Assembly: GCF_002020135.1 (NCBI RefSeq)
Contig: NZ_MPZS01000003.1
Coordinates: 248,001-312,000 of the forward strand
Length of the DNA: 64,000 nucleotides
Origin: Thioclava marina
GTDB taxonomy: Bacteria > Pseudomonadota > Alphaproteobacteria > Rhodobacterales > Rhodobacteraceae
Direction: 5' to 3'
The notes under the pieces are model-generated. The model had not been told where the DNA came from, did not search any database, and saw only the letters and a program-made list of their open reading frames with translations. This document shows, in pieces, positions 35,810 through 53,935 of the stretch. A program made the translations under genes and the position numbers. The stretch's first letter is position 1; every line of letters begins with the position of its first letter.

Positions 35810-38278
35810 ATGACATCGCACCACGCCCATGGCACGGCCCGTAACGCGGCCCATGACGCCCCCGACACGATCACGCGCGACCCGGTCTGCGGGATGACCG
35901 TGGACCCGAATGCCGACAAGCCCAGCCATGACCATGACGGGCATCGTTACCACTTCTGCTCACAGGGTTGTCACGACAAGTTCGTGGCCAAGCCTGACGC
36001 CTACATCAAGGCGACCGATCCGGTTTGCGGCATGTCGGTCGAGCGCGCCACGGCGAAGCATATGGGCAAGCTCGACGACGAGCGGTTCTATTTCTGCTCC
36101 GCCGGGTGCCAGCACAAGTTCGAAGCGCGGCCCGAGGATTATCTGGGCGTCCGTCCTGTGGCGAAGCCGATGCCCGAGGGCACGCAATATACCTGCCCGA
36201 TGCACCCCGAGATCATCGAAGACAAGCCCGGTGATTGCCCCAAATGCGGCATGGCGCTGGAGCCGATGAGCCCCACGGCCGATGCGGGCCCGAACCCCGA
36301 GCTGGTCGATTTCCGGCGCAGGCTGAAGATCATGGGGCCGCTCGCGGCGGCGGTCTTCGTGCTCGAGATGGGCGCGCATATCGGGCTGCCCTTCGCCGAG
36401 TGGGTCGGGCCGAAAGCCTTCCTCTGGCTGCAATTCGCGCTGGCGACGCCGGTGCTGTGGTTCGCGCGGCCCTTCTTCGTGCGGGGGTGGAAATCGGTGG
36501 TCAACGTCTCACCCAACATGTGGACGCTGATCGCGCTCGGCACGCTTGCGGCTTACCTGTTCTCGCTCGCGGGTCTGCTGGTGCCGGGCGTCTTCCCGGC
36601 CGAGATGCTGAACGCGCACGGCCTGCCGCCGGTCTATTTCGAGGCTTCGGCCGTGATCCTCGTGCTGGTGCTGGTCGGCCAGATCATGGAGCTGACGGCG
36701 CGCGAGAGAACCGGCGATGCGATCCGCGCGCTGATGGATCTCGCGCCGAAGACCGCGCGCCGGGTGGGCGAGACCGGCGACGAGGATGTGCCGCTCGACC
36801 TCGTGCAGACCGGCGACAAGCTGCGCGTGCGCCCGGGCGAGACAGTGCCGGTGGATGGCGTGGTGTCTGAGGGCTCTTCGTCCATCGACGAGAGCATGAT
36901 CACCGGCGAGCCGGTACCGGTCGAGAAATCCCAAGGCGATGCGGTCACCGGTGGCACGCTGAACAAGCAGGGCAGTTTCGTGATGGAGGCACAGGCGGTG
37001 GGCGCGGAAACCACACTGTCGCGCATCGTCGAGATGGTCGGCAAGGCACAGCGCTCGCGCGCGCCGATCCAGGGGCTGGCAGACCGGGTGTCGCTTTACT
37101 TCGTGCCTGCCGTGGTGATCTGCGCGCTGCTCGCCTTCCTCGCATGGCTGGCCTTCGGGCCGCCGCCGGCGCTGGGCTATGCGACGGTCGCCGCGGTCTC
37201 CGTCCTGATCATCGCCTGTCCCTGCGCCTTGGGCCTCGCCACGCCGATGTCGGTGATGGTCGGTACCGGACGGGGCGCGAGCGCGGGCGTGCTGATCCGC
37301 GACGCCGAGGCGCTGGAGCGGTTCGCCAAGGTCGACACGCTGATCGTCGACAAGACCGGCACTTTGACCGAGGGCAAGCCCGCGCTGACCGATGTGATCG
37401 CGGACGAGGCCTCGGAGGAAGAGGTCAAGTCGCTCGCCGCCGCGCTGGAGCGCGGCTCGGAGCACCCGCTGGCCGAGGCCATCGTGCAAGGCGCGGAGGA
37501 TGCGCCGAAGCGCGACGTGGATGGCTTCGAGGCGGTGATCGGCAAAGGCGTCACGGGGCGCGTGGACGGCGCGCAGATCGCGCTCGGCAACGCCGCCCTT
37601 ATGGCGCAGATCGGTGCGGATGTCGCGCGTCAGTCCGAGACGGTCGAGCGCCTGCAATCGGACGGCAAAACGGCGATGTATCTCGCCCGCGACGGGGCGG
37701 TGATCGGCGTGATCGCGGTGGCCGACCGGATCAAGGAAACGACGCAAGAGGCGATCCGCGCGCTTCATGCCGAGGGGTTGCGCATCGTCATGGCCACCGG
37801 CGACAGCGAGGCAACCGCGCGGGCCGTCGCACGCGAGCTGGGCATCGACGAGGTCCATGCCGGGGTCTCGCCCGAGGACAAGGCCGCACTGGTCGAAACA
37901 CTGCGCAAGGGCGGCGCCTCGGTCGCGATGGCGGGCGACGGGGTGAACGACGCCCCCGCGCTGGCTGCCGCCGATGTCGGGATCGCCATGGGCACCGGTG
38001 CCGATGTGGCGGTGGAAAGCGCGGGGCTAACGCTGGTCAAGGGCGACCTGACCGGGATCGTGCGCGCCCGTCGCCTGGCCGAAGGGGTGATGCGCAACAT
38101 ACGCCAGAACCTGTTCTTCGCCTTCGCCTATAACTCGGCGGGCGTGCCGATTGCGGCGGGCGTGCTTTACCCCGTCTTCGGTGTGCTGCTCTCGCCGGTG
38201 ATCGCGGCGCTTGCAATGAGCTTTTCCTCGGTCTCGGTGATCGGGAACGCCTTGCGGTTGCGGAGGCTGAAGCTGTGA
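35810..38278 (+). CDS. copA: Cu(I)-exporting P-type ATPase with two YHS domains
   Basis: 822-residue P1B ATPase. N-terminal region is unusual: two YHS domains ([10 protein letters not shown]...CSQGCHDKF at about 24-66; [11 protein letters not shown]...CSAGCQHKF at about 68-110) then a heavy-metal-binding YTCPMHPEI...[11 protein letters not shown] module (about 125-155) in place of classical CxxC HMA domains. The core has TGEPVPVEK, the transmembrane CPC metal site (Cys470, Cys472), phosphorylated Asp514 in DKTGTLTEG, and [10 protein letters not shown]. It pumps Cu(I) to the periplasm, where the multicopper oxidase acts. CueR-type promoter lies just upstream. Confidence 0.94.
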
Positions 38279-40441: not shown

Positions 40442-42664
40442 ATGCCTACGACACTTCTTGCAAACCTGAAACGAACCGTCGCGCCTGCCACATTGGTGCT
40501 GTGCATGGGGCAGGCGGCCTGGGCCGGAACATTCGACGATGCTCCTGTCATCAGCGTCACCGGTGACGGCTATATCTTTGCTGATCCAGCGGAAGGGGTT
40601 GAGCCCCCCGGTCTCAAGGCGGTCACGGGCGAGGTGAATGCCGATTTTCCGAACACCTCAAATCCCAGTGGCATTACCAACTGCCTGATGGCCAACACGC
40701 CGGATTTCATTTGCACCGCCCCTTCGGGCTCGGGCAAGCGGGTCAAGACGCGGCTCACCGGACCGACCCCGTTGGAGATCCTGCTCTCGACGCAGGCAAG
40801 CAACGGCATCACGGAATACTACACCTACGGCAAGACCTCGAACCTCACGGGAGCCCGTATCCTGGGATTCGAGGTGGCACTCGGGACGGGGACGGGGGAC
40901 AGTTTCACGGCGTTTGACCCGAACGATCCGTCGACCGCGGCGCTCTTTGACGCCGATTACAATCCGAAGTTCAACCTCCCCGATGGCCTCTTCGGCGATG
41001 GGGGGCAGGAAGGCGCGGGTGTCGGTTTCTTCGACAGCAGCTCGGCCGAGATGACGATCACGAATTCGCTCATCACGCTGGATGCGACCAACCTGTCGAA
41101 TTCCGTTCTTGGAACCTATTTCGGCAATTCGCTGATCGACGACAGCATGCTGCCCCAGGCTTTCTTCTGGGACGCGACGGGCACGCCGGTCGCCTCGGAT
41201 GAAGACCTGCTCGTGGCCTGGTACAACGTGAGCACGGATCAATGGCAGTATGGGAACCTGGGCGTCAGCGGCGACCAATATCTGACCGACAAGCTTCAGG
41301 CGCTGGCCGACACGCTTGGCGTTTCGGTGGCCGATCTCGGCTATACCTCGGGCGGTGACACGGTGCCTGCCGATATCGTCGCGGCGATGCAGGCCAACGG
41401 TCTCTTCGCGGAAGACGTGATCGAGGACCTGCGGAACCTGAACCTGAACTACATGATCGATCTCGGAGATGTGGCGGGCAACAGCGTGACCATGCGCCTC
41501 ACGCCCATCTTCGCCCCGATCGTTGCGGAAACCCTGACGCCCTATCAGTTCACGACGGCCGGTCGCCTCGATTCCGCGGCCAACATTCCCTATCTCGATA
41601 TCGGGAATGCGGGCACCTACCAGACCGCGATCGCTGATATCCTGGCGGTCGAGGATCCGGTGGCGCAAAACGAGTTGCTTGAAACCACGGGCTTCAGTTT
41701 CCTGCCCGCGTTCAAGGCTGTCGGCTTCGAGTTCGGGCAAAGCATCACGAACGGGATCGGCAAGCCGGTGGCACAATCGCAGAATGGATCGGTCACGATC
41801 TCCACGATGGGCGGGCCCACGACCTGGAAGATTGGGGACAATACCTATGCCTTCGTCTCCACCGGCGCGCAGCAAGCCAGCTATGATCGCACGGTCAATG
41901 CGATCGGGTATGACGTCAACGCCTACTACCTCATGTTCGGTGCAGAAAAGCATGTCGGCTCTCTCTTCTCGGTCGGCCTCTTCGGTGGCTATGCGAGCGG
42001 GACCTCTGACGCGAACCAGGATCGCGGAAGCATCGACGGCTCCGGCGGCTTCATCGGCGGCTTCGCGCGCGCGGCCTTCGGGACGGGGGGGGCCGCACAG
42101 TTCGTGCTGGGCTATCAGGACCTCTCCTACGACATGAAGCGCAACGTCATGGGCGAGACCGCCAAGGCGAGCACGAGCGGCCATCAGGTCTTCGCGGCGC
42201 TCGATGCGGAATACATGTTCGGGAAGAACCGGTTCCGCTTCGGGCCGACGGGGTCGCTCGAAATGTACCACCTGTCGGTTGACGGTTTCGACGAAACCGG
42301 AGCCGGCGCCTGGAATCTGTCTGTCGGGGATCAATCCGGGAATGTGGTTGTCGCCTCCGCCGGGATGCGCGGCGAATACGCGCTTTCCTCCGGCCCGCAG
42401 GCACCGACCCTGTCCGGAACGATCAAATACAACAAGGTCAGCGGAGACGACGAACTGGTGCAGGTGGCTTTCGTCGGCCTGCCGTCCAGCGCAAGTCCGG
42501 CCGATGGTTTCGACATGAACTGGGTGAGCGCCGATCTCGGGATCGACGTGCCGCTTGGCCAGACCGGAAAGTTCGTTTCCAGTCTTCATGCCGGGATCTC
42601 GGGTTCGTTCTCGAGCGACTACGAAAACCACGCGGTGCAGTTCTCGTTCAACGCGAAGTTCTGA
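40442..42664 (+). CDS. autotransporter with choice-of-anchor-type passenger
   Basis: 740 residues: signal peptide ending GQAAWAG, a passenger of about 430 residues rich in Asp, Thr and Gly with no repeats (choice-of-anchor F-like region: KTRLTGPTPLEI...GFEVALGTGTGDSF), and a C-terminal beta-barrel from about residue 465 with alternating hydrophobic strands, ending in Phe (FSFNAKF), as outer-membrane barrels do. The passenger is presented at or released from the cell surface. No neighbouring gene is co-oriented within 500 bases, so it is monocistronic. Passenger function unknown. Confidence 0.8.
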   Translation: MPTTLLANLKRTVAPATLVLCMGQAAWAGTFDDAPVISVTGDGYIFADPAEGVEPPGLKAVTGEVNADFPNTSNPSGITNCLMANTPDFICTAPSGSGKRVKTRLTGPTPLEILLSTQASNGITEYYTYGKTSNLTGARILGFEVALGTGTGDSFTAFDPNDPSTAALFDADYNPKFNLPDGLFGDGGQEGAGVGFFDSSSAEMTITNSLITLDATNLSNSVLGTYFGNSLIDDSMLPQAFFWDATGTPVASDEDLLVAWYNVSTDQWQYGNLGVSGDQYLTDKLQALADTLGVSVADLGYTSGGDTVPADIVAAMQANGLFAEDVIEDLRNLNLNYMIDLGDVAGNSVTMRLTPIFAPIVAETLTPYQFTTAGRLDSAANIPYLDIGNAGTYQTAIADILAVEDPVAQNELLETTGFSFLPAFKAVGFEFGQSITNGIGKPVAQSQNGSVTISTMGGPTTWKIGDNTYAFVSTGAQQASYDRTVNAIGYDVNAYYLMFGAEKHVGSLFSVGLFGGYASGTSDANQDRGSIDGSGGFIGGFARAAFGTGGAAQFVLGYQDLSYDMKRNVMGETAKASTSGHQVFAALDAEYMFGKNRFRFGPTGSLEMYHLSVDGFDETGAGAWNLSVGDQSGNVVVASAGMRGEYALSSGPQAPTLSGTIKYNKVSGDDELVQVAFVGLPSSASPADGFDMNWVSADLGIDVPLGQTGKFVSSLHAGISGSFSSDYENHAVQFSFNAKF

Positions 42665-42715: not shown

Positions 42716-43086
42716 ATCGCTATAGCTCACCCCGGATCCGCGCCATCCGCCGTGAGGGAAGACCGGACCTCACGATCTCGCGCGAGTGGCCGCCGAAAAG
42801 CAAATGGCAAAAGCGAAATCCAGCGGTCACGTCTCTGCCCGCACGAGATGGTTTTCACGGCTAGTCTCGAAAGGATCGCTGTTCCCGCCGGTAGTGTCGT
42901 GGCTTCGGCGCCCTTCAGTGACGGTGATTCTTGTCGCAACATGACTGAATTTTGCTTTTGATCCGGGATTTGTGCTCAAAATTTGTGCAAAATTCCGTGA
43001 TGGACTGTCGTTGAGCGCATGAGCCGGAAGGATGGCAAGTTTTATTCTTGTCGACCGCCACCCCGCGCTGCAATTCTTCCAGCACA

Positions 43087-43114
43087 TCGGAACGACCCGA
43101 ATGGCAATCACGCC
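43087..43114 (+). promoter_or_regulatory. ANTAR-type hexaloop hairpins in the amiC leader
   Basis: Hairpin 1: stem TCGG/CCGA at 43087-43100 around the hexaloop AACGAC, with A at loop position 1 and G at position 4, the bases conserved in known ANTAR target RNAs. Hairpin 2: stem GGC/GCC at 43103-43114 around hexaloop AATCAC (A at 1, but C at 4). The 3' arm of hairpin 2 is also the 5' arm of the terminator, so forming it would block termination, as expected for AmiR-type control. Confidence 0.6.
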
Positions 43115-43165
43115 TCGCTTTGACACCGCGCATCTGCGGCCCGTCAGCGAGGCGTTTTGCGTTTT
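43111..43165 (+). terminator. attenuator terminator before amiC
   Basis: 9-bp stem CGCCTCGCT (43111-43119) / AGCGAGGCG (43146-43154), an inner stem GAC/GTC and a further CCGC/GCGG hairpin, followed by TTTTGCGTTTT. It ends 28 bases before the amiC start. A strong intrinsic terminator placed upstream of the operon it belongs to indicates attenuation. Confidence 0.8.
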
Positions 43166-43192
43166 GGGCCCGAAATGTCTGCCGGAGTGAAA

Positions 43193-44299
43193 ATGAAAAA
43201 ACGGATCGAACTTGGCCTGCTCTATTCTCGCTCGGGGAGTTATTCGTTGATCTCCGAGGCGTGCCGGACAGGGGCGCTGAGTGCGATTGCCGAGATCAAC
43301 GCCATCGCGGACTTTCCCTTGAGCCTGATCCCCGTCGAGCGCGATCCGCAGGGCAATATCGACGCCTATGGCCCGCTTTGCGAGGAAATCCTGCGCGACA
43401 GCAGTGCCCGGCACGTGATCGGCTGTGTGACCTCGTGGAGCCGCAAGGAGGTCATTCCGACGCTCGAGAAGGCGGGTGGGACGCTCTGGTATGCCGTGCC
43501 CTATGAGGGGTTCGAGGCTTCCGATCACATCGTCTACACCCATGCCTGCCCGAACCAGCACCTGCTGCCGCTGCTGGGCTGGGCCTTCGCGCGGCTCGGG
43601 CGCCGGGGCTTCCTGACCGGGTCGAACTATATCTGGGGCTGGGAGATGAACCGGCTTGCACGCGATGTGATCTCGACGGCGGGAGGGGAGGTTCTGGGCG
43701 AACGCTATCTGCCGCTCGGCTCGCTCGAGATCGACCGGATGATCGACGAGATCCGCGCCACGCGCCCCGATTTCGTGCTCAACAACCTGATCGGTCCGTC
43801 GCAATACGCCTTCCTCGAAGCCTATCACCGCCTCGGTCAGGAAGACCCGCATTTCCGCCCCGAGACCTGCCCGATCCTGTCGTGCAATCTCACCGAATGC
43901 GAAGTGCCGGCGATCCATCCGGCGGCGGCCGAGGGGCTGGTCGCGGCGGGGCCCTATTTCCGGGGGGCTACGGGCTGGCCCGACGCCGTGAACCGGAATT
44001 TCGGCTCCTCGCACGAGGCGGCCGCCTGGTCCTCGGTCTATCGTCTGGCCCGATTGCTTTCTGGCCATGAAGGCGCACCCGAGCAAAGCCTCGCGCAGCT
44101 TCTGGCCGAGGCGCCCGCAGGCAGCGAGGGCATCGATCTTGCGACCCACCACACCGCTCTGCCCGTGCTGATCGCGCAGGTCGAGAACGGCGCTTTCAAG
44201 GTTCGCGAGAGCTTCGCGCCGGTGGCCGGCGATCCTTATCTCGCGCATGGCCGCGAAGCGGTCGCACCCGGGGCGCCGCGTCTGAAGGTGGTGTCATGA
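43193..44299 (+). CDS. amiC: AmiC-like amide-sensing protein (cytosolic periplasmic-binding fold)
   Basis: 368 residues of the branched-chain amino acid/amide-binding fold (AmiC/UrtA group) with no signal peptide, so it stays in the cytosol. IELGLLYSRSGSYSLISEA, the Gly/Ser-rich GSNYIWGWEMNRLARD and GPYFRGATGW segments match the family. In Pseudomonas AmiC holds AmiR inactive until an amide binds. The ATG at 43193 has a ggag five bases upstream, unlike two earlier in-frame starts. Stop overlaps the next start by four bases. Confidence 0.88.
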   Translation: MKKRIELGLLYSRSGSYSLISEACRTGALSAIAEINAIADFPLSLIPVERDPQGNIDAYGPLCEEILRDSSARHVIGCVTSWSRKEVIPTLEKAGGTLWYAVPYEGFEASDHIVYTHACPNQHLLPLLGWAFARLGRRGFLTGSNYIWGWEMNRLARDVISTAGGEVLGERYLPLGSLEIDRMIDEIRATRPDFVLNNLIGPSQYAFLEAYHRLGQEDPHFRPETCPILSCNLTECEVPAIHPAAAEGLVAAGPYFRGATGWPDAVNRNFGSSHEAAAWSSVYRLARLLSGHEGAPEQSLAQLLAEAPAGSEGIDLATHHTALPVLIAQVENGAFKVRESFAPVAGDPYLAHGREAVAPGAPRLKVVS

Positions 44300-44904
44300 A
44301 GCGCAAGATCCGCATCCCGAACCTCGGCGGCGCACACGCCTATATCCTGCATCGCCCGCACCCGACCTTGCAGGCGCTTGACCGGCAATTGCGCGCGATC
44401 GGCCTGACGGTCGTTCATTGCTGGCCCGAACTGCCTGCCGAGGCGCTCTCGGGCGATTTCATCTTCTTCGATGCCGATCAGGGCTATGACGAGCAATTCC
44501 CGTGGAAACCGGGTCAGAGCCCGATGCCGATGATCGCACTGATCGGCTCGGAAGCACCGGGGCGGATCGAATGGTCGCTCGAGGCGGGGGCGCATGCGCA
44601 GCTTCTCAAGCCGGTGGGCGATGGCGGGGTCTACTCGGCGCTGCTGATCGCGCGGCTCGCGTTCGAGGCGCGCCAGTCGCTCTCGGCCGAGATCGCGGAT
44701 CTGCGCCGCAGGCTCGATGAACGCCAGACGGTCGTGCGCGCCGTCACGCTTCTGGCCGCGCGCGGCAAGACCGAAGCCGAGGCCTATGACCAGCTGCGTC
44801 AGATGGCGATGGCCTGGCGCGTCAGTTTCGAGGATGCCGCGCGCCGCATCGTCGCCAACCACGAAGAGCAGGGGGGCTCCGATGACCGACGCGACCTTGG
44901 CTGA
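44296..44904 (+). CDS. amiR: AmiR-like ANTAR antiterminator
   Basis: 202 residues. A pseudo-receiver domain at 1-125 (no clear phospho-Asp set), a coiled-coil helix (ADLRRRLDERQTVVRAVTLL) and a C-terminal ANTAR RNA-binding three-helix domain, GKTEAEAYDQLRQMAMAWRV...AARRIVA. It pairs with AmiC encoded just upstream. The leader before amiC contains a matching hexaloop hairpin and terminator, so this protein likely controls its own operon by antitermination in response to amides. Confidence 0.9.
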   Translation: MKRKIRIPNLGGAHAYILHRPHPTLQALDRQLRAIGLTVVHCWPELPAEALSGDFIFFDADQGYDEQFPWKPGQSPMPMIALIGSEAPGRIEWSLEAGAHAQLLKPVGDGGVYSALLIARLAFEARQSLSAEIADLRRRLDERQTVVRAVTLLAARGKTEAEAYDQLRQMAMAWRVSFEDAARRIVANHEEQGGSDDRRDLG

Positions 44905-45769
44905 GGGGCCGACCCGCCCGCAAAGCGCGTTGCGCCGTCTGCTGCGGCGCAAGCTCGCGATCCTGGGGATGGCGATCATCGCGATCGTGACGCTCGGGGC
45001 GATTTTCGCACCCTGGATCGCGCCCTTCGCTCCGCAGGAACAGATGTTCGACGGGCTGACGCTGGAAGGCGCACCGATGCCGCCGGGCGAGAAGTTCTGG
45101 CTGGGCACCGACCTGCTCGGGCGCGACCTGTTCTCGCGCATCCTTTATGGCGCGCGGACCTCGCTGATCATCGGGGTCGTGGCGAACGGGCTGGCGCTGA
45201 TCATCGGCACGCTGATCGGAGTCACGGCGGGTTATTTCCGCGGCTGGATCGGCGCGGTGCTGATGCGCTTCACCGATCTGATGATGGCGTTTCCGGCGCT
45301 CTTGCTGGCGATCTGCCTTGCCGCGATCTTCACGCCTTCGCTGTGGATCGTCGCGATGGTGATCGCGCTGGTGAACTGGGTGCAGACGGCGCGGGTGGTC
45401 TATACCGAGACCTCGGCGCTGGCCGAGCGGGAATTCGTCGCCGCCGAGAAGACGCTGGGGGCAGGGACCGCGCGCATCCTGTTCCGCCACATCCTGCCGC
45501 ATCTGGTGCCGATGATCATCGTCTGGGGCACGCTGGGCATCTCGACCACCGTGCTGCTCGAGGCGACGCTGAGCTATCTTGGTGTGGGCGTTCAGCCCCC
45601 GACGCCGAGCTGGGGCAACATCATCTTCGAGAACCAGACCTATTTCCAGGCGGCCCCGTGGCTCGTCTTCATTCCGGGCGCCGCGATCCTGGCTCTGGCG
45701 CTGTCCTTCAACCTCGTGGGCGACGCGCTGCGCGACGTGCTCGACCCGACGCAAAGAGGGCGTGAGTGA
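44882..45769 (+). CDS. dipeptide/amide ABC transporter permease, DppC type
   Basis: 295 residues. Start LRRKLAILGMAIIAIVTLGAIFAPWIAPF and LGTDLLGRDLFSRILYGARTSL are hallmarks of DppC/OppC; the EAA loop is EFVAAEKTLGAGTARILFRHILPHL. Five to six membrane helices. The ATG at 44882 overlaps the end of amiR by 23 bases. Partner of the DppB permease encoded next. Confidence 0.92.
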   Translation: MTDATLAEGPTRPQSALRRLLRRKLAILGMAIIAIVTLGAIFAPWIAPFAPQEQMFDGLTLEGAPMPPGEKFWLGTDLLGRDLFSRILYGARTSLIIGVVANGLALIIGTLIGVTAGYFRGWIGAVLMRFTDLMMAFPALLLAICLAAIFTPSLWIVAMVIALVNWVQTARVVYTETSALAEREFVAAEKTLGAGTARILFRHILPHLVPMIIVWGTLGISTTVLLEATLSYLGVGVQPPTPSWGNIIFENQTYFQAAPWLVFIPGAAILALALSFNLVGDALRDVLDPTQRGRE

Positions 45770-46689
45770 TGCTGGCCTATCTGATCCGTCGCCTGATCCA
45801 GGCCGCCCTGATCCTGCTGGGCGTGTCCTTCATCACCTTCTTCCTGCTCTTCGTGCTGCCGGCCGACCCGGTGCGCCAGATCGCGGGCCGTTCCGCCACG
45901 CCCGAGACGGTGGCCAATATCCGGCATCAGCTTGGCCTCGATCAGCCCTTCGTGGCGCAATACTGGCGCTACCTGACGGGGCTCTTCCAGGGCGACATGG
46001 GCCGCAGCTACCTGCAGAAGACGGAAGTGGCCACGCTGATCACCGCGCGTCTGCCCGCGACGCTTTTGCTGATGCTGGGCGCGATCGTGGCCGAGCTGGT
46101 CATGGGGCTCACACTGGGCATCGTGGCTGCGATCCGGCGCGGGGGCGCGCTCGATCAGTCGCTGATGATCACCTCTTTCGTCGCGGTCTCGGCGCCGCAA
46201 TTCGTGGTCGGCCTGCTGCTGCTCTATGTCTTCGCGGTCAAGCTGAGCTGGTTCCCGATCGGCGGCTACGGCAGCTTCTCGAACCTTGTCCTGCCCGCGC
46301 TCACGCTCGGGATCATGGGCTCGGGCTGGTATAGCCGGATGATGCGCTCCTCGATGATCGACGTGCTGCGCTCGGACTATATCCGCACCGCGCGCGCCAA
46401 GGGGCTGCGCCGCGCCCGCGTGCTGGCGCTGCACGCGATGCCCAACGCCATCCTGCCGATCATCGCGATGATCGGGATCGATATCGGCATCTTCATGTCG
46501 GGCATCGTCGTGGTGGAAAGCGTCTTCGGCTGGCCGGGCATCGGGCAACTGGCGTGGCAGGCGATCCAGCGCGTCGACATCCCGATCATCATGGGCGTCA
46601 CGCTGGTCTCGGCCTGCGCGATCGTTCTGGGCAACCTGCTCGCCGATCTGATCACCCCCTTCATCGACCCGCGCATCAAGCTGCGCTGA
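45769..46689 (+). CDS. dipeptide/amide ABC transporter permease, DppB type
   Basis: 306 residues. MLAYLIRRLIQAALILLGVSFITFFLLF at the start, GLDQPFVAQYWRYLTGLFQGDMGRSY, and the EAA loop DYIRTARAKGLRRARVLALHAMPNA are characteristic of DppB/OppB. The ATG at 45769 shares one base with the DppC stop (TGATG); a GTG three bases earlier is an alternative. Confidence 0.92.
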   Translation: MLAYLIRRLIQAALILLGVSFITFFLLFVLPADPVRQIAGRSATPETVANIRHQLGLDQPFVAQYWRYLTGLFQGDMGRSYLQKTEVATLITARLPATLLLMLGAIVAELVMGLTLGIVAAIRRGGALDQSLMITSFVAVSAPQFVVGLLLLYVFAVKLSWFPIGGYGSFSNLVLPALTLGIMGSGWYSRMMRSSMIDVLRSDYIRTARAKGLRRARVLALHAMPNAILPIIAMIGIDIGIFMSGIVVVESVFGWPGIGQLAWQAIQRVDIPIIMGVTLVSACAIVLGNLLADLITPFIDPRIKLR

Positions 46690-46763
46690 TCGCAACCAGA
46701 TACCCTGGGCCAACCGGGGAGCAAACGAAAAGAAAAATTCAACAGACGGAGAGAAAACTCAAA

Positions 46764-48404
46764 ATGAGCCTGATGAAAAACATCCTTGCCACCAGCGCGC
46801 TGTCGCTCTCGCTTGGCCTTGCGAGCCTCGCCTCGGCGCAGGACTACCAGCCCGACCCGAACGCCAAGTCCGGTGGCAATATCATCGTCACCTACAAGGA
46901 CGATGTGGCCACCCTCGACCCGGCAATCGGCTATGACTGGCAGAACTGGTCGATGATCAAATCGGTCTTCGACGGGCTGATGGATTACGTCCCCGGCACC
47001 ACCGAACTGCGCCCCGGCCTCGCCGAGAGCTACGAGATTTCCGAGGATGGCACGACCTTCACCTTCAAGCTGCGCGAGGGCGTGAAGTTCCACAACGGCC
47101 GCGAGATGACCGCCGAGGACGTGAAATACTCGCTCGACCGCGTGACCACCCCGGCCACCCAGTCGCCCGGCGCGGGCTTCTTCGGCTCGATCAAGGGCTA
47201 TGACGCGATGGCGGATGGCTCGGCCACCAGCCTCGAAGGCGTTACCGTGGTCGATCCCTATACCGTCAAGATCGAGCTCTCGCGCCCCGACGCGACCTTC
47301 CTGCACGTGATGGCGCTGAACTTCGCCTCGGTCGTGCCGAAGGAAGCGGTGGACGAATACGGCGCCGATTTCGGCAAGCATCCCGTGGGCACCGGCGCGT
47401 TCAAGCTTGCCGACTGGACCATCGGGCAGAAGCTCGTCTTTGAAAAGAACGCCGATTACTGGCGTCCGGGCGTGCCGTACCTCGACAGCATCACCTTCGA
47501 GGTCGGCCAGGAACCGATCGTGGCGCTCCTGCGTCTGCAGAAGGGTGAGGTGGACGTGCCCGGCGACGGCATTCCGCCCGCGAAGTTCAACGAGGTGATG
47601 GGCAATCCCGACGAGGCCAAGCAGGTCGTCGTGGGTGGCCAGCTGCATACCGGCTACATCACGCTCAACGTCGAGATGGCGCCCTTCGACAAGGTCGAGG
47701 TGCGTCAGGCGATCAACATGGCGATCAACAAGGATCGCATCGTGCAGATGATCAACGGCCGCGCGACCCCCGCGACCCAGCCGCTGCCGCCCTCGATGCC
47801 GGGCTACACCAAGGATTACGCGGGCTACCCCTTCGACCCCGCGAAGGCCAAGGAGATGCTTGCCGAGGCCGGTCTGCCTGACGGGTTCGAGACCGAGCTT
47901 TACGTGATGAACACCGATCCCAACCCGCGCATCGCGCAGGCGATCCAGCAGGATCTGGCGGCGATCGGCGTGAAGGCCGATATCAAGGCGCTGGCGCAGG
48001 CCAACGTGATCGAGGCGGGCGGCACGCCGAAGACCGCGCCGATGATCTGGTCGGGCGGCATGGCCTGGATCGCGGATTTCCCCGATCCGTCGAACTTCTA
48101 CGGCCCGATCCTGGGCTGCGCCGGTGCGGTCGAGGGCGGCTGGAACTGGTCGTGGTATTGCAACAAGGATCTCGACGCGATGGCCACCGAGGCGGACTCG
48201 ATCACCGATCCGGCCAAGCAGGACGAGCGCCTGCAGAAATGGTCGGACGTCTACATGAAGGTCATGGAAGACGCGCCCTGGGTCCCGGTGTTCAACGAGA
48301 ACCGCTACACGATGAAGTCGACCCGCATGGGCGGCGCCGATGCGCTCTATGTCGATCCGGTTTCGATCCCGGTGAACTACGATTACGTCTACGTGACGGA
48401 GTAA
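46764..48404 (+). CDS. ABC substrate-binding protein, DppA/OppA family
   Basis: 546 residues: signal peptide SLMKNILATSALSLSLGLASLASAQ, then the class C binding-protein fold with DVATLDPAIGYDWQNWS, GLAESYEISEDGTTFTFKLREGVKFHNG and DVKYSLDRV. It delivers ligand to the DppBC permeases. Though the family is named for peptides, the AmiC-AmiR control and the formamidase next door suggest an amide or N-acyl compound. Confidence 0.92.
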   Translation: MSLMKNILATSALSLSLGLASLASAQDYQPDPNAKSGGNIIVTYKDDVATLDPAIGYDWQNWSMIKSVFDGLMDYVPGTTELRPGLAESYEISEDGTTFTFKLREGVKFHNGREMTAEDVKYSLDRVTTPATQSPGAGFFGSIKGYDAMADGSATSLEGVTVVDPYTVKIELSRPDATFLHVMALNFASVVPKEAVDEYGADFGKHPVGTGAFKLADWTIGQKLVFEKNADYWRPGVPYLDSITFEVGQEPIVALLRLQKGEVDVPGDGIPPAKFNEVMGNPDEAKQVVVGGQLHTGYITLNVEMAPFDKVEVRQAINMAINKDRIVQMINGRATPATQPLPPSMPGYTKDYAGYPFDPAKAKEMLAEAGLPDGFETELYVMNTDPNPRIAQAIQQDLAAIGVKADIKALAQANVIEAGGTPKTAPMIWSGGMAWIADFPDPSNFYGPILGCAGAVEGGWNWSWYCNKDLDAMATEADSITDPAKQDERLQKWSDVYMKVMEDAPWVPVFNENRYTMKSTRMGGADALYVDPVSIPVNYDYVYVTE

Positions 48405-48410
48405 ACGCGC

Positions 48411-49370
48411 ATGTGCAAAGCCTGTGATTACACGATCCACGGCGCACAGCACCATTTCGGCTGGGACAACTCGCTTGTCCCGGCCGAGACGGTCGCTCCC
48501 GGATCGACCATCGAGTTCCATTGCCACGACAGCTCGGCCGGACAGCTCGGGCCGTCCTCGACGGTGGAAGATGTGAAGACGCTCGATTTCGGCAAGATCA
48601 ATCCGGTTTCCGGGCCGATCTATGTCGAAGGCGCGCAGCCCGGCGATGTTCTGAAAGTCACCATCGACAGCTTTACCCCGCGCGAGCAGGAGGGCTCGGC
48701 CTGGGGCTGGACCGCGAATATCCCCGGCTTCGGTCTGCTGGCGGATCAGTTTGAAGATCCGGCGCTGAACATCTGGAAATACGATGCCACCTCGCCCGAC
48801 AAGGCGCTCTGGGGCTCCGAGGGCAAGGTCGCGCTCAAGCCCTTCTGCGGCACGATCGGCGTAGCCCCTGCCGAGGCGGGTCTGCATTCCATCGTCCCGC
48901 CGCGCCGCGTCGGCGGCAATCTCGATATCCGCGATCTGGCGGCGGGCACCACGCTCTACCTTCCGGTCGAGGTCGAGGGCGCGTTGTTCTCCGTAGGCGA
49001 CACCCATGCCGCGCAGGGCGATGGCGAGGTTTGCGGCACCGCGATCGAGAGCCCGATGAACTGCGTGCTCAGCTTCGATCTGATCAAGAACGAGACGCTG
49101 AAATTCCCTCGCTTCACCACGCCGGGGCCGGTCACGCGCCATCTCGATACGGCGGGCTACGAGGTCACCACGGGCATCGGCCCGGATCTGATGTCGGGCG
49201 CGCGCGATGCGGTTTCCGGCATGATCGACCTGCTGTGCAAGACGCGCGGCATGTCGGCGGTCGATGCCTATATGCTGGTCTCGACCTGCGGCGATCTGCG
49301 GATCTCCGAGATCGTGGACATGCCGAACTGGGTCGTCAGCTTCTATTTCCCGAGAAACGTGTTCGAATGA
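48411..49370 (+). CDS. fmdA: acetamidase/formamidase
   Basis: 319 residues of the FmdA_AmdA family, cytosolic, hydrolysing formamide or acetamide to the acid and ammonia. HHFGWDNSLVPAETVAPGSTIEFHCHDSSAGQL spans the metal-binding N terminus (His, Asp and His residues), with VEGAQPGDVLKVTI and GDTHAAQGDGEVCGTAIE further on. It begins six bases after the binding-protein stop and overlaps the ATPase start by four bases. This is the only catabolic enzyme of the operon and gives the assumed inducer class. Confidence 0.93.
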   Translation: MCKACDYTIHGAQHHFGWDNSLVPAETVAPGSTIEFHCHDSSAGQLGPSSTVEDVKTLDFGKINPVSGPIYVEGAQPGDVLKVTIDSFTPREQEGSAWGWTANIPGFGLLADQFEDPALNIWKYDATSPDKALWGSEGKVALKPFCGTIGVAPAEAGLHSIVPPRRVGGNLDIRDLAAGTTLYLPVEVEGALFSVGDTHAAQGDGEVCGTAIESPMNCVLSFDLIKNETLKFPRFTTPGPVTRHLDTAGYEVTTGIGPDLMSGARDAVSGMIDLLCKTRGMSAVDAYMLVSTCGDLRISEIVDMPNWVVSFYFPRNVFE

Positions 49371-51190
49371 TCGAAGTGAAAGAAATAAACGCCGGGGCCG
49401 ATATGGCCCCGGAGGCGTCCCAGCCGGTGCTGTCGGTCGACGGGCTCACGATCTCGGTGCGCTCGGAAGGGCGCGAACGACCGCTGGTGCGCGACCTCAG
49501 CTTCACGCTCGCGCGCGGGGAAACCATCGCGATCGCGGGCGAGAGCGGGTCGGGCAAGTCGCTGACCTCTCTGGCGATCATGGGGCTGTTGCCGCCGCCC
49601 GCGCTGCGCGTCAGCGCCGGGGCGATCCGGTTCCACGACGAAGATCTCACGCGCCTGCCCGAGAGCCGGATGCGCGCCATTCGCGGCAATCGCATCGCAA
49701 TGATCTTTCAGGAGCCCATGACCTCGCTCAACCCGGTTCTGACCATCGGCCTGCAACTGGCCGAGGCGATCCGCGCCCATGAGCCGGTCTCAAAACGCGA
49801 GGCCCGCGCCCGCGCGCTCGAGGCGCTGCGCCGCGTGCGGATCTCCGAACCCGAACGACGGATGGGCCAGTATCCTCACGAGCTTTCGGGCGGGATGCGT
49901 CAGCGCGTGATGATCGCGATGGCGCTCGCGCTGCGCCCCGACGTGCTGATCGCGGATGAGCCCACGACCGCGCTTGACGTGACGGTGCAGCGCGAGGTGC
50001 TCGACCTGCTGCGCGATCTGCAAGCGGAGATGGGCACCGCGATCATCCTGATCACCCATGACATGGGCGTCGTGGCCGAGATGGCCGAGCGGGTGATCGT
50101 GATGAAACAGGGGCAGGCCGTCGAGACGGGCAAGGTTGCGCAAATTTTCACTGCCCCGCGCGAGGCTTACACGCAGGATTTGCTGGCAGCGGTACCGCGC
50201 ATGGGCGACGGCAGCGGCGCGCCCGTGGCCGATCCACAGGCAAAACCGGTCGCGAAGCTGCGTGACGTGCAGGTGCGGTTCGACATTCGTGGCGGGATCC
50301 TCTCGCAGGTGACGCACCGGGTCCACGCGGTCGAGGGCGTCAGTTTCGACATCATGGAGGGCGAGACCTTCTCGCTCGTCGGCGAAAGCGGCTGCGGGAA
50401 GTCCACGATCGCGAAGGCGCTCACGGGGCTCGTGCCCCATCAGGGCCGGATCGAGGTCGCGGGCCATACGATGGGCGGCTTGAGCGGCGCGAAGATGAAA
50501 GAGATGCGGCGCGACGTGCAGATCGTGTTCCAGGACCCGATGGCCGCGCTCGACCCGCGGATGCGGGTGGGTGATCTCGTGGCCGAGCCTTTGGTCATTC
50601 ACGGCATCGGCACGCCCGAGGAGCAGCGCGAGAAGGTCGCGGGCCTCTTCGAGCGGGTGGGGCTCACCCGCGATCAGCTCGACCGCTATCCGCACGAGTT
50701 CTCGGGCGGTCAGCGTCAGCGGATCTGCATCGCGCGTGCGCTGGCGCTGCAACCCAAGCTGATCGTCGCGGATGAAAGTGTCTCGGCGCTTGACGTTTCG
50801 GTTCAGGCGCGGGTGCTGGAACTGCTCGACGCCCTGAAACGCGAGTTTGGCATCGCTTACCTGTTCATCAGCCATGACATGGCCGTGGTCGAGAATATCT
50901 CGGACCGGATCGCGGTGATGTATATGGGCCAGATCGTCGAGATGGGGACGCGGGCGCAGATTTTCGGCGCGCCGCAGCATCCCTATACCAAGCGCCTGAT
51001 GGCAGCCGTACCGATCCCCGATCCCGACAGGGTTCGCGCCCCTACACCGCGCCTGTCCGGCGAGGTGCCAAGCCCGGTCTACAAGTTCGGAGAGCAACCG
51101 CAACGTCTGGCCTTGCGCAACATCGGGAACGGCCATCTCGTGGCGGATCCCAATGTCGAGGCGACGGCTCCTGGCAGCATCGCCCATTGA
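49367..51190 (+). CDS. fused DppD-DppF-type double ATPase
   Basis: 607 residues with two full ABC domains of the peptide-importer class. Domain 1: AGESGSGKSLTSLAIMG, LSGGMRQRVMIAMAL, VLIADEPTTALD. Domain 2: VGESGCGKSTIAKALTG, FSGGQRQRICIARAL, LIVADESVSALD. Each ends with the oligopeptide-transporter C-terminal extension. The GsiA-like fusion replaces separate dppD and dppF. The ATG at 49367 overlaps the formamidase stop. Last gene of the operon. Confidence 0.93.
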   Translation: MIEVKEINAGADMAPEASQPVLSVDGLTISVRSEGRERPLVRDLSFTLARGETIAIAGESGSGKSLTSLAIMGLLPPPALRVSAGAIRFHDEDLTRLPESRMRAIRGNRIAMIFQEPMTSLNPVLTIGLQLAEAIRAHEPVSKREARARALEALRRVRISEPERRMGQYPHELSGGMRQRVMIAMALALRPDVLIADEPTTALDVTVQREVLDLLRDLQAEMGTAIILITHDMGVVAEMAERVIVMKQGQAVETGKVAQIFTAPREAYTQDLLAAVPRMGDGSGAPVADPQAKPVAKLRDVQVRFDIRGGILSQVTHRVHAVEGVSFDIMEGETFSLVGESGCGKSTIAKALTGLVPHQGRIEVAGHTMGGLSGAKMKEMRRDVQIVFQDPMAALDPRMRVGDLVAEPLVIHGIGTPEEQREKVAGLFERVGLTRDQLDRYPHEFSGGQRQRICIARALALQPKLIVADESVSALDVSVQARVLELLDALKREFGIAYLFISHDMAVVENISDRIAVMYMGQIVEMGTRAQIFGAPQHPYTKRLMAAVPIPDPDRVRAPTPRLSGEVPSPVYKFGEQPQRLALRNIGNGHLVADPNVEATAPGSIAH

Positions 51191-52031: not shown

Positions 52032-52772
52032 TCAAGTCGCAAGCAGCCTTCCATGACCCGCCGCCGCGATCCGTGCGCCCGACAGGTGCGCCATGTGCCA
52101 GCCGAGCACCTGGTTCGAACTGAGCACCGGCATTCCCAGCTCGGCCTCGAGCGGGGCGATGATATCGAGCGTGCGCAGGTTGGTGCAGGACAGGAAGACC
52201 CCGTCGATCCTGTTGCGACGGGCGAGGGTGCGCGCGGCCTCGGCAATCGAGGCGGGCGCGATCCGGGCCACGCGGGCCTCCACCTCTTCACCGAAGGAGA
52301 GCGTGTCGGGGACGGTCAGCCCCGCCGCCTCGAAGGCCTGCCGGATCGGCCCCGCGACCGGGGCGATATAGGGTGAGACGATCCCCACACGCTCCAGCCC
52401 CAGCGCGTGGCAGGCCGCCAGCGCGGCGCTGAGCGGATCGGTCACGGCGCGGCTTTGCACTGCACCCGAGACAAGCTCCGCCACACGCGCGGCCCCGATC
52501 AGCGTCGTGCCGGAGGTGCAGGCATAGCCCACCGCATCGAACCGGGCGGCCGGGGGCAGTAGCGCGGCCGCCGCAGGTAGCGTGGCCTCCATCTCGGCGA
52601 TCGTGTCGGGGGTCAGCTCGGCCCCCGAAGGCACGCGGCTGACATGGATCCGCGCCGCTTCGGGCGGAAAGAGACGGCGGAAATCCTGTTCGATCGTCTC
52701 ATCGACCTGAAGCACCACAAGACCGAGCCGGGGCAGGGCCTCTTCGAACAACTCATAGGGAAAGGCGCTCAT
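52032..52772 (-). CDS. Asp/Glu racemase-superfamily protein, maleate isomerase-like
   Basis: 246 residues. Two cysteines in the expected catalytic positions: GYACTSGTTLIG and FLSCTNLRTLD, as in maleate isomerase, arylmalonate decarboxylase and the EutA protein of ectoine degradation. Overlaps the stop of the upstream M24 gene by four bases. The EutA-EutD pairing (racemase-like plus M24 hydrolase) is suggestive, but the remaining ectoine-degradation genes are not in the window. Confidence 0.83.
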   Translation of the reverse strand: MSAFPYELFEEALPRLGLVVLQVDETIEQDFRRLFPPEAARIHVSRVPSGAELTPDTIAEMEATLPAAAALLPPAARFDAVGYACTSGTTLIGAARVAELVSGAVQSRAVTDPLSAALAACHALGLERVGIVSPYIAPVAGPIRQAFEAAGLTVPDTLSFGEEVEARVARIAPASIAEAARTLARRNRIDGVFLSCTNLRTLDIIAPLEAELGMPVLSSNQVLGWHMAHLSGARIAAAGHGRLLAT

Positions 52773-53935
52773 CCGACGATCTCCGGCAATTCTGCGGGCG
52801 CGCGGCGCGACAGAAGCTCGACCCCGTCCTCGCGCAGCACGATGTTTTCTTCATGCACGAGGATATGCCCGTCGCGCGTCTCGCAGCCCGGCTCCAGCGT
52901 AAGCACCATGCCCGCGCGCAGCGGCGTCGTGTCGAGAGGCGTGAAGGAGGGCCATTCGGTCAGAGTGATCCCGAGCCCGTGGCCGAGCCTGCCGCCCGAG
53001 GGCGTGGCACCATGGCGGCGCAGCCCGGCGCAGAGCATCGCATGGACGTCGCAGGCCCGGTGACCCGGGCGCAGGGTGGCGATCACCTCTTCGGTCGCCT
53101 GCCAGAGCGCGTCATTGGCGCGCCGGGCGCAATCCGAGGCGGGACCGATCGCCCAGTTGCGGTCGAAATCGCAGAAATAGCCCTCGCGCACCGCGCCGGT
53201 GTCGAGCATCAGCACATCGCCGGGGCGCAAGGGCTCTGGGCCGGCGGGCGAGATCACATCGCCATAACCATCGCACCCGGCTCCGCCCGCGACATAGCTC
53301 ACCCAATCCGCGCCCTCGTCGAGCAGTGCGATCTGGAAATCGCGGAACACGGCGTCGAGCTTCCGCCCCGCTCGGGCAAATTCCGGCACCCGATCGAACG
53401 CGCGCGCAGCGATTTCGCAGCTCGTGCGGATCTTCGCGATCTCGGCTTCGGACTTGATCTCGCGCACCCGCTGCACGCAGGCGGTGGCGTCCACGAGGGC
53501 GCGCGGGGCGAGGCGGGTGCGCAGGGCCTCGAAATCGGCCAAGGGCATGCGCAGATGCGTCTCCAATCCCATCGGCAGACCAATCCGTCCGCTTTCGGGC
53601 ACCAGATCCGCCAGCGTCCCGGCCAGCAGGCTCACCCCGTCATCACGCGGATCGGGGGCGTCCCATGTGCGGATCTGCGGGATCCAGCAGCGCCCCATCA
53701 GCTCGGCCCCGATCGCTGGGATCACCGCCACGGGCTCGCCCGATTGCGGCACAACGACGAACCACGGACGGGCGGGGCTCTCCCAGAAACGGGTGAGAAA
53801 CCCGGCCGTGTAGAAAATATCGGCGGGCGCGCTCAGCAATAGCGCGTCGAGCCCGCCCGCAGCCATCCCCGCTTGCAGCCGCGTGACGCGGTCGCGATAT
53901 TCCTGCGCGGGAAAGATCAGGGATTTCTCGGTCAT
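52769..53935 (-). CDS. M24-family metallopeptidase (Xaa-Pro dipeptidase / ectoine hydrolase-like)
   Basis: 388 residues: N-terminal creatinase domain (1-150) and a pita-bread M24 domain. Metal ligands of the family are visible: MLDTGAVREGYFCDFDRNWAIG (two Asp), GHGLGITLTEWP (His), TLEPGCE (Glu) and ILVHEENIVL (Glu). Possible roles are Xaa-Pro cleavage, creatinase-like hydrolysis or opening of a cyclic amidine such as ectoine. First gene of the three-gene minus-strand operon. Confidence 0.86.
   Translation of the reverse strand: MTEKSLIFPAQEYRDRVTRLQAGMAAGGLDALLLSAPADIFYTAGFLTRFWESPARPWFVVVPQSGEPVAVIPAIGAELMGRCWIPQIRTWDAPDPRDDGVSLLAGTLADLVPESGRIGLPMGLETHLRMPLADFEALRTRLAPRALVDATACVQRVREIKSEAEIAKIRTSCEIAARAFDRVPEFARAGRKLDAVFRDFQIALLDEGADWVSYVAGGAGCDGYGDVISPAGPEPLRPGDVLMLDTGAVREGYFCDFDRNWAIGPASDCARRANDALWQATEEVIATLRPGHRACDVHAMLCAGLRRHGATPSGGRLGHGLGITLTEWPSFTPLDTTPLRAGMVLTLEPGCETRDGHILVHEENIVLREDGVELLSRRAPAELPEIVG

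What the first reader, a model, noticed from the sequence alone, without database searches (positions are those of the whole stretch)
43087..43165. ANTAR antitermination leader controlling an amide importer-formamidase operon
A hexaloop hairpin with A1/G4 (AACGAC), a second hexaloop whose 3' arm overlaps a 9-bp terminator stem, and a TTTTGCGTTTT tail lie just before amiC-amiR. The operon would be self-controlled: amide binds AmiC, AmiR is freed, binds the leader and lets transcription run into its own genes, transporter and formamidase. The second loop has C instead of G at position 4, a possible variant of the ANTAR RNA motif.
Basis: partly seen in the sequence, partly recalled or inferred. 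Interest (0 to 1): 0.7.

Follow-up and report, generated by a model that had tools for sequence, protein, structure and literature searches.

The report
Amide-operon RNA switch, variant ANTAR loop
A short RNA leader before a probable amide-uptake operon can fold either into a stop signal or into a tiny hairpin that the operon's own regulator probably grips; across relatives that hairpin lacks a base thought important for this regulator family, and in many the usual partner hairpin is missing, so the textbook rule for such switches may be too narrow.

Summary
A P2 match occurs in all 82 distinct orthologous leaders (79 also pass a terminator rule), and the terminator covaries. The non-G base at P2 position 4 is a family trait: C 61, U 15, A 3, G 0 of 79. 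P1's G4 is not conserved: 4 of the 14 closest leaders; an A1/G4 hexaloop upstream of P2 in 7 of 79. P1 is lineage-specific (by eye 45 present, 25 absent, 9 unclear). Where a promoter can be read in P1-less leaders, the predicted start lies about 5-11 nt before P2, leaving no room for P1. All 79 AmiR orthologs carry V, I or A in place of EutV Lys149, one of three residues that hydrogen-bond G4. Best reading: AmiC-AmiR antitermination acting on one non-canonical hexaloop (A1-Y4-R5), a new variant of a known kind. AmiR binding, transcript starts and the amide signal were not tested. 'Formamidase' and 'amide importer' are family-level guesses.

The parts
43048..43053 (+). putative -35 element TTGTCG (one mismatch to TTGAC in its first five letters), 55 nt before P2
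   Evidence: Read by eye against close leaders; exact TTGAC upstream of P2 in 48 of 79 orthologous leaders vs 3.3 in shuffles, not in the window itself.
43072..43077 (+). putative -10 element AATTCT, 18-nt spacer (weak match)
   Evidence: prediction by eye only. The promoter scan found nothing here.
43084..43090 (+). predicted transcript 5' end (ACATCGG)
   Evidence: 7 nt after the -10; an ACATA-like anchor lies 34-38 nt after exact TTGAC in 28 leader-anchor pairs, other distances in a minority
43087..43100 (+). P1 hairpin TCGG-AACGAC-CCGA (A1, G4)
   Evidence: hairpin at this place in 31 of 59 non-redundant leaders vs mean 6.7 in shuffles; G4 in 4 of the 14 closest loops
43103..43114 (+). P2 hairpin GGC-AATCAC-GCC (A1, C4, A5), probable AmiR-binding antiterminator
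43111..43154 (+). intrinsic terminator, arms 43111-43119 and 43146-43154; excludes P2
43155..43165 (+). U-rich tail TTTTGCGTTTT
43193..44299 (+). amiC-like sensor (Peripla_BP_5)
   Evidence: Pfam 264.9 bits; best PDB hit P. aeruginosa AmiC 1pea, E 6.6e-41
44296..44904 (+). amiR-like antiterminator (AmiR_N + ANTAR)
   Evidence: AlphaFold model pLDDT 88.9, best Foldseek hit AmiR 1qo0 E 4.2e-11, then EutV-RNA 6ww6
44870..45769 (+). OppC/DppC-type ABC permease (start uncertain)
45766..46689 (+). OppB/DppB-type ABC permease
46632..48404 (+). SBP_bac_5 solute-binding protein (start uncertain, probably further 3')
48411..49370 (+). acetamidase/formamidase-family enzyme (substrate unknown)
   Evidence: Pfam FmdA_AmdA 214.2 bits; FmdA equivalog 135.6 bits vs cut-off 500
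49382..51190 (+). double-domain ABC ATPase (GsiA/OppDF type; start uncertain)

Best explanation
The leader is a transcription attenuator worked by the operon's own AmiC-AmiR pair. Without inducer, AmiC holds AmiR and the transcript folds the 9-bp terminator. With inducer, AmiR is freed, grips the P2 mini-hairpin (GGC, hexaloop with A1, pyrimidine at 4, purine at 5, GCC) as it leaves RNA polymerase, keeps its 3' arm out of the terminator, and transcription runs into amiC, amiR, the Opp-type transporter and the acetamidase/formamidase-family enzyme. The recognition element in this clade is one hexaloop that has lost G4. P1 is a lineage-specific accessory hairpin, not an obligatory second A1/G4 hexaloop. 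SHOWN by sequence comparison: P2-terminator overlap, conservation, covariation, operon content, uneven presence of P1, absence of G4 in P2 and of Lys149. INFERRED: AmiR binds P2, AmiC holds AmiR, the inducer is a small amide, the transcript starts.
For: P2 plus overlapping terminator in 79 of 82 distinct orthologous amiC leaders by script, with a P2 pattern match in the other 3 too (one of the 3, L131, has GCA for GCC). Loop position 4: C 61, T 15, A 3, G 0; position 5: G 59, A 20; same trend among the 37 distinct loops (C 28, T 6, A 3). Terminator covariation: 61 cells changed on both sides vs 25 in shuffles, score 0.427 vs 0.237, 0 of 500 shuffles reaching either; 90.1% paired vs 42-54% when slid. 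P1 present 45, absent 25, unclear 9 (set by eye) on the AmiR tree, 3 changes vs 20.8 for shuffled labels (quick tree). TTGAC-to-P2 distance 43-47 nt in the 9 P1-less leaders outside the rhizobial group with exact TTGAC, 53-63 in the 31 with P1, no overlap. In all 79 AmiR orthologs EutV K149 is V 76, I 2 or A 1, while R142 (79), E/D160 (77), Y164 (76) and M172 (78) are kept. The genome's own NasT keeps K149, and the leader I read by eye before the nitrate-transporter-like genes has an A1/G4 loop, AAAGCC. Eight of eight annotated plasmid relatives among the ten fetched have the same seven-gene order (two records, carry no annotation). In its own genome, 1 of 20 P2-pattern hits is followed by a terminator, this one.
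Against: No binding, transcript-start or read-through data. R5 pairs with the first U of the tail in 54 of 54 rows, so R5 may serve the terminator, not AmiR. The K149-G4 link is loose: three paralogous AmiRs with V at 149 (L022-L024) have G4 loops, and NmPAL keeps the Lys yet binds a single hairpin with loop AGCAGC. One paralogous leader (L027) may lack even A1 (by eye). In the characterised EutV system P1 deletion ablates induction and changing G4 of either loop reduces it. The in-genome NasT contrast rests on my eye: its P2 stem has a G-U pair, and my scan, which forbade G-U, did not flag it. Nearly all leaders come from two alphaproteobacterial orders, so rows are not independent.
Confidence: 0.72

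Rival explanations
1. Canonical dual-hexaloop ANTAR leader: P1 (A1/G4) is the recruiting hexaloop and P2 a tolerated variant.
For: The window's P1 has A1 and G4 and both hairpins fold; A1 is kept in all 14 closest P1 hexaloops.
Against: G4 in 4 of those 14; A1/G4 hexaloop upstream of P2 in 7 of 79 leaders; P1 absent in 25 of 79 by eye; linker of 2 nt where cutting the EutV linker to 3 nt sharply reduced induction.
Confidence: 0.14
2. P2 is conserved only as the 5' arm of a terminator; AmiR acts elsewhere in the leader or on another RNA.
For: R5 and loop position 6 pair with the tail side in the terminator; GCC is its 5' arm.
Against: GGC and A1 take no part in the terminator helix, yet every one of 82 leaders has a match to GGCA.....G[CT][CA], at the terminator in 79, against 8 of 79 with a match elsewhere upstream; position 4 is never G in 79; most paralogous amiCR leaders with a terminator that I read repeat GGC-A.....-GCC with other letters at 4-5.
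Confidence: 0.07
3. Insulation code: paralogous ANTAR proteins of one cell use different letters at loop positions 4-5 so as not to read each other's leaders (NasT G-C, AmiR1 C-A, AmiR2 A-C in this genome).
For: Loops AAAGCC (L155), AATCAC (window) and ATTACC (L053) in one genome.
Against: One genome read, loops assigned by eye for two of three; no binding data; three loops could differ by drift.
Confidence: 0.25
4. A constitutive attenuator or a leftover terminator with no AmiR control.
For: No functional data exist for this operon in the calls.
Against: The exact overlap of a conserved mini-hairpin with the terminator in 79 leaders before amiC-amiR.
Confidence: 0.03

Closest known systems
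AmiC-AmiR / amiEBCRS of Pseudomonas aeruginosa
   Same: Same sensor and antiterminator families; regulator genes inside the operon they control; terminator in the leader (PMC3369931 passages and section 7; PMC3795266 passages).
   Different: Here amiC-amiR come first, an Opp-type transporter and an FmdA_AmdA enzyme follow, and the seven genes include no amiE, amiB or amiS; EutV-K149 equivalent is V, where P. aeruginosa AmiR has K; P2 loop has no G4, whereas the amiE leader is described as A1/G4 (I did not read that leader).
EutV / eut leaders of Enterococcus faecalis (dual hexaloop ANTAR RNA motif)
   Same: Mini-hairpin P2 overlapping a terminator; E160, Y164, R168, M172 equivalents kept in the window AmiR.
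   Different: Linker 2 nt not 5-12; P2 lacks G4; P1 lineage-specific and mostly not A1/G4 in relatives.
NasS-NasT nitrate system (own genome; Paracoccus in PMC3795266)
   Same: Ligand-binding partner plus ANTAR protein; leader with terminator.
   Different: Own NasT keeps K149; own-genome loop AAAGCC, read by eye, has G4.
NmPAL and its RNA aptamers
   Same: An ANTAR protein that binds a single hairpin; motifs 2 and 3 share loop letters AGCAGC, i.e. no G4 but A1 and G5 (PMC10966536, passages).
   Different: Selected aptamers and a genome-mined candidate, light control; not an antitermination leader; keeps the Lys.

Membership tests
ANTAR dual-hexaloop RNA motif (Ramesh 2012) | Two hairpins, each at least 3 bp with a hexanucleotide loop | tested here: met
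   In the window; not in 25 of 79 orthologous leaders, scored by eye as lacking P1
ANTAR dual-hexaloop RNA motif (Ramesh 2012) | A at loop position 1 | tested here: met
   Both loops in the window; P2 79 of 79 (the search pattern demanded it, but all 82 leaders had a match)
ANTAR dual-hexaloop RNA motif (Ramesh 2012) | G at loop position 4 of both loops | tested here: not met
   P1 yes in the window, P2 no; P2 G4 in 0 of 79 orthologs; P1 G4 in 4 of the 14 closest
ANTAR dual-hexaloop RNA motif (Ramesh 2012) | Inter-hairpin linker (5-12 nt in eut) | tested here: not met
   2 nt in the window; an actinobacterial survey accepted 2-25 nt (PMC8164766 passages)
ANTAR dual-hexaloop RNA motif (Ramesh 2012) | P2 overlaps a mutually exclusive intrinsic terminator | tested here: met
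ANTAR antitermination (mechanism) | Cognate ANTAR protein binds the leader and permits read-through | not testable with these tools
   Needs binding and transcription assays
AmiC-AmiR regulator pair | AmiR_N pseudo-receiver + coiled coil + ANTAR | tested here: met
   Pfam above cut-offs; AlphaFold model with one long helix 112-154 before the last two helices, best hit AmiR 1qo0
AmiC-AmiR regulator pair | AmiC-type binding protein encoded next to AmiR | tested here: met
   1pea E 6.6e-41; amiC and amiR overlap by 4 nt
AmiC-AmiR regulator pair | Small aliphatic amide as inducer | not testable with these tools
   No ligand data
FmdA formamidase | NCBIfam FmdA equivalog cut-off (500 bits) | tested here: not met
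   135.6 bits; family-level FmdA_AmdA is met

The most novel reading that the evidence does not exclude
A whole clade of AmiR antiterminators has changed the ANTAR recognition code: it reads one hexaloop placed at or near the very 5' end of the transcript, with A1, a pyrimidine at 4 and a purine at 5 instead of G4, using an ANTAR domain whose G4-contacting lysine became valine. The upstream hairpin that is obligatory for EutV is lost or replaced by an unspecific structural hairpin, and loop letters 4-5 keep paralogous ANTAR systems in one cell apart.
Probability: 0.3. Interest if true: 0.62.

Novelty: new variant of a known kind. Interest (0 to 1): 0.45.

Why it matters
If AmiR really antiterminates on one Y4 hexaloop, the minimal ANTAR target is smaller and looser than assumed. 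The P1-less leaders would then be natural test cases for the open question of why EutV needs two hairpins when a dimer seems able to hold only one at a time (PMC8934654, sections 21, 22 and 26 read).

Tried and rejected
Rfam at two thresholds gave nothing, so no Rfam family could be used as a test. The sigma-70 and terminator scanner reported nothing. A covariance model found only the window leader in its own genome at E up to 1 (the window is in the model). A class-wide search with it over 385 genomes at E up to 0.001 found only the window genome; only 13 candidates per genome were scored and it missed G055, whose leader (L015) shows P2, so I draw no absence from it. A P. aeruginosa AmiR query over 398 phylum genomes (E up to 1e-12) and over plasmids (30 of 200 records listed) brought no AmiR above 36% identity among the rows shown, so the amiE leader itself was not read; its A1/G4 loops are quoted from PMC3369931. 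The idea that K149 loss dictates G4 loss was weakened by L022-L024 and NmPAL. The idea that R5 is an AmiR contact was weakened by its pairing with U in the terminator. The P1 per-sequence shuffle test was weak for single leaders (21 of 79 at 4 or fewer of 200; for the window 16 of 200); the set-level test was used instead, where windows 40-140 nt further upstream in the same leaders gave 6 to 14 hairpins against 31 of 59 at P1. One fold (L013) was cut two bases short of P2's end by my coordinates and says nothing.

Rows left out of counts: 28 leaders with AmiC identity under 45%, mostly paralogs, read separately; L002 and L003, without enough upstream DNA; duplicates over -150..+30 (112 distinct entries kept). 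Three leaders missed by the terminator script: L015, L087, L131. Rows L008, L017, L130 (doubtful arms) and near-duplicates were dropped from alignment A1 (54 rows). Nine leaders with unclear P1 were not counted on the tree. P1 states were set by eye.

Full report
WHAT IS THERE. The window lies in an alphaproteobacterial genome (G000:C3:248001-312000), most like Thioclava: T. pacifica AmiR is 97% identical. Upstream of an amiC-amiR pair lie P1 (43087-43100), a 2-nt linker, P2 (43103-43114), and a terminator (43111-43154) with U-rich tail (43155-43165). RNA folding of 43084-43114 gives exactly the two mini-hairpins, and 43111-43165 gives the terminator. A longer stretch, 43075-43172, folds the terminator inside a longer helix that also takes up the 3' arm of P1. 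The operon reads amiC (43193-44299), amiR (44296-44904), two Opp-type permeases, an SBP_bac_5 protein, an FmdA_AmdA enzyme and a double ABC ATPase. I fetched ten plasmid relatives out of 264 records with a match (40 listed). Eight are annotated and all eight show the same seven-gene order, four of them with the ATPase cut by the end of the stretch (the Roseateles record is marked UNVERIFIED_ORG). Two carry no annotation there.

IS IT CONSERVED. Relatives of AmiR were fetched from 198 family genomes, 16 genus genomes and a collection of 84,980 species genomes (70 loci). The DNA upstream of amiC was extracted. Of 82 distinct leaders with AmiC at least 45% identical to the window's, 79 have GGC-hexaloop-GCC whose 3' arm opens a terminator by the script's rule; the other 3 have a pattern match but failed that rule, one of them with GCA for GCC. 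The pattern demanded GGCA and the first G of the 3' arm; no leader failed it, and 8 of 79 have a match elsewhere upstream. In an alignment of 54 leaders (A1) GGCA and GCC are invariant. The terminator helix is paired in 90.1% of cells, with 61 cells changed on both sides (25 in shuffles) and a covariation score above all 500 shuffles and all slid versions; the number of pairs with a double change (6) is not above shuffles (89 of 500 reach it).

THE LOOP. P2 loop letters in 79 leaders: position 1 A 79 (demanded by the pattern); position 4 C 61, T 15, A 3, G 0; position 5 G 59, A 20. Among 37 distinct loops position 4 is C 28, T 6, A 3. RNAalifold extends the terminator by one pair: position 5 with the first U of the tail in 54 of 54 rows. 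That offers a plain reason for R5, but none for avoiding G4. Paralogous amiCR leaders, read by eye, mostly keep GGC-A.....-GCC with other letters: AATTCC, AATTTT, ATTTCC, ATTACC in the second Thioclava system (L048-L053); AATCGG (L020), AACAGC (L021), AATAGC (L153), AGTTTC (L151, L152), AGTATG (L154), ACTTGG (L149), ATCTGG (L150); and G4-G5 loops in L022-L024; L027 may begin with G.

P1. In the 14 closest leaders (AmiC over 80% identical; 11 from the window's genus) the P1 hexaloop has A1 in 14 and G4 in 4. Over all 79 leaders an A1/G4 hexaloop within 12 nt upstream of P2 occurs in 7: the same 4 and three with weak A/T-rich stems. In a non-redundant set, 31 of 59 leaders have a hairpin of score 10 or more within 4 nt of P2, against a mean of 6.7 (maximum 14) in shuffles and 6 to 14 in windows further upstream (loops of 3-7 nt searched). 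By eye I scored 45 present, 25 absent, 9 unclear; on the AmiR tree this takes 3 changes, against 20.8 for shuffled labels (quick tree, many open forks). An exact TTGAC lies upstream in 48 of 79 leaders, against 3.3 in shuffles. Its distance to P2 is 43-47 nt in the 9 P1-less leaders outside the rhizobial group that have it and 53-63 nt in the 31 with P1 (7 unclear ones 51-58; the rhizobial row L132, 68 nt, not counted). With ordinary sigma-70 spacing (recalled knowledge) the start falls about 7-11 nt before P2 in those P1-less leaders. In Pseudochrobactrum L107, by eye, TTGCGG-17-TATAAT puts it about 7 nt before P2. A 12-nt hairpin cannot fit there. All starts are predictions.

THE PROTEIN. 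The AlphaFold model of AmiR (pLDDT 88.9) matches P. aeruginosa AmiR best (1qo0, E 4.2e-11), then EutV bound to RNA (6ww6) and Rv1626. In EutV, G4 stacks on Tyr164 and is held by Arg142, Lys149 and Glu160 (PMC8934654, section read). Among 79 orthologs, position 142 is R 79, 160 is E 67 or D 10, 164 is Y 76, 172 is M 78, but 149 is V 76, I 2, A 1. In NasR the matching K347R change (by my numbering shift) weakened binding about 10-fold (PMC7496416 passages). The window genome's own NasT keeps K149, and the leader before the nitrate-transporter-like genes has a G4 loop, AAAGCC, read by eye with a G-U pair in its stem; my scan, which forbade G-U, did not flag it. Against a strict rule: L022-L024 have V149 with G4 loops, and NmPAL has the Lys but binds a single hairpin with loop AGCAGC at about 3.5 nM (PMC10966536 passages).

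HOW IT PROBABLY WORKS. As in the statement of the best explanation. The antitermination logic follows from the families and the P2-terminator overlap; AmiR binding, AmiC release and the identity of the inducer are inferred. In the genome, 20 places match a P2 pattern and only this one is followed by a terminator, and the covariance model finds only this place (built partly from it). By these two searches AmiR controls only its own operon.

COMPARED WITH WHAT IS KNOWN. It probably works like P. aeruginosa AmiC-AmiR, and the proteins belong to that family. The RNA does not meet the published A1/G4 dual-hexaloop definition (G4 not met in P2; linker 2 nt). In EutV, deleting P1 ablates induction, changing A1 or G4 of either loop reduces it, and a 3-nt linker sharply reduces it (PMC3369931, section read). 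NasR binds P2 alone at about 12 uM against about 1 uM for P1P2 (PMC7496416 passages). A natural P1-less, G4-less leader would therefore be a real departure. Single-hexaloop sites were raised as a possibility, for settings without the time limit of a transcribing polymerase, in PMC8934654. My open-access searches listed no report of this variant.

Noticed in passing
G000:C3:118000-128000 (L156, minus strand): A second amiC-amiR pair with leader loop ATTACC sits before what look, by eye, like branched-chain/urea-type ABC transporter genes; its AmiR also has V at the EutV-149 position.
   Followed up: partly
G000:C3 about 88,060-88,220 (L155 10,060-10,220): NasT-type leader between nasS-like and nitrate-transporter-like genes, with loop AAAGCC (A1, G4) overlapping a terminator; an in-genome contrast. 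Gene names and hairpin by eye.
   Followed up: partly
L022, L023, L024: Paralogous AmiR leaders with G4-G5 loops although their ANTAR domains carry V at the EutV-149 position; L020-L022 also have Leu in place of Tyr164.
   Followed up: partly
window 52035-53935, minus strand: An arylmalonate decarboxylase-family gene and a creatinase-type M24 peptidase gene lie beside the amide operon on the other strand; possibly linked amide or nitrogen catabolism.
   Followed up: no
window 40442-42664: 740-aa secreted-looking ORF upstream of the leader, on the same strand, ending in a beta-rich, autotransporter-like part (by eye only).
   Followed up: no
window 35810-38278: Heavy-metal P-type ATPase (copper type by eye) with a histidine-rich start.
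   Followed up: no
L030, L033, L026, L028 and relatives: Another AmiC-AmiR group keeps the Lys (AKF motif, seen and, for L026 and L028); I see no terminator before amiC, which starts right after what looks like a Clp-type ATPase gene, so its RNA target probably lies elsewhere.
   Followed up: no
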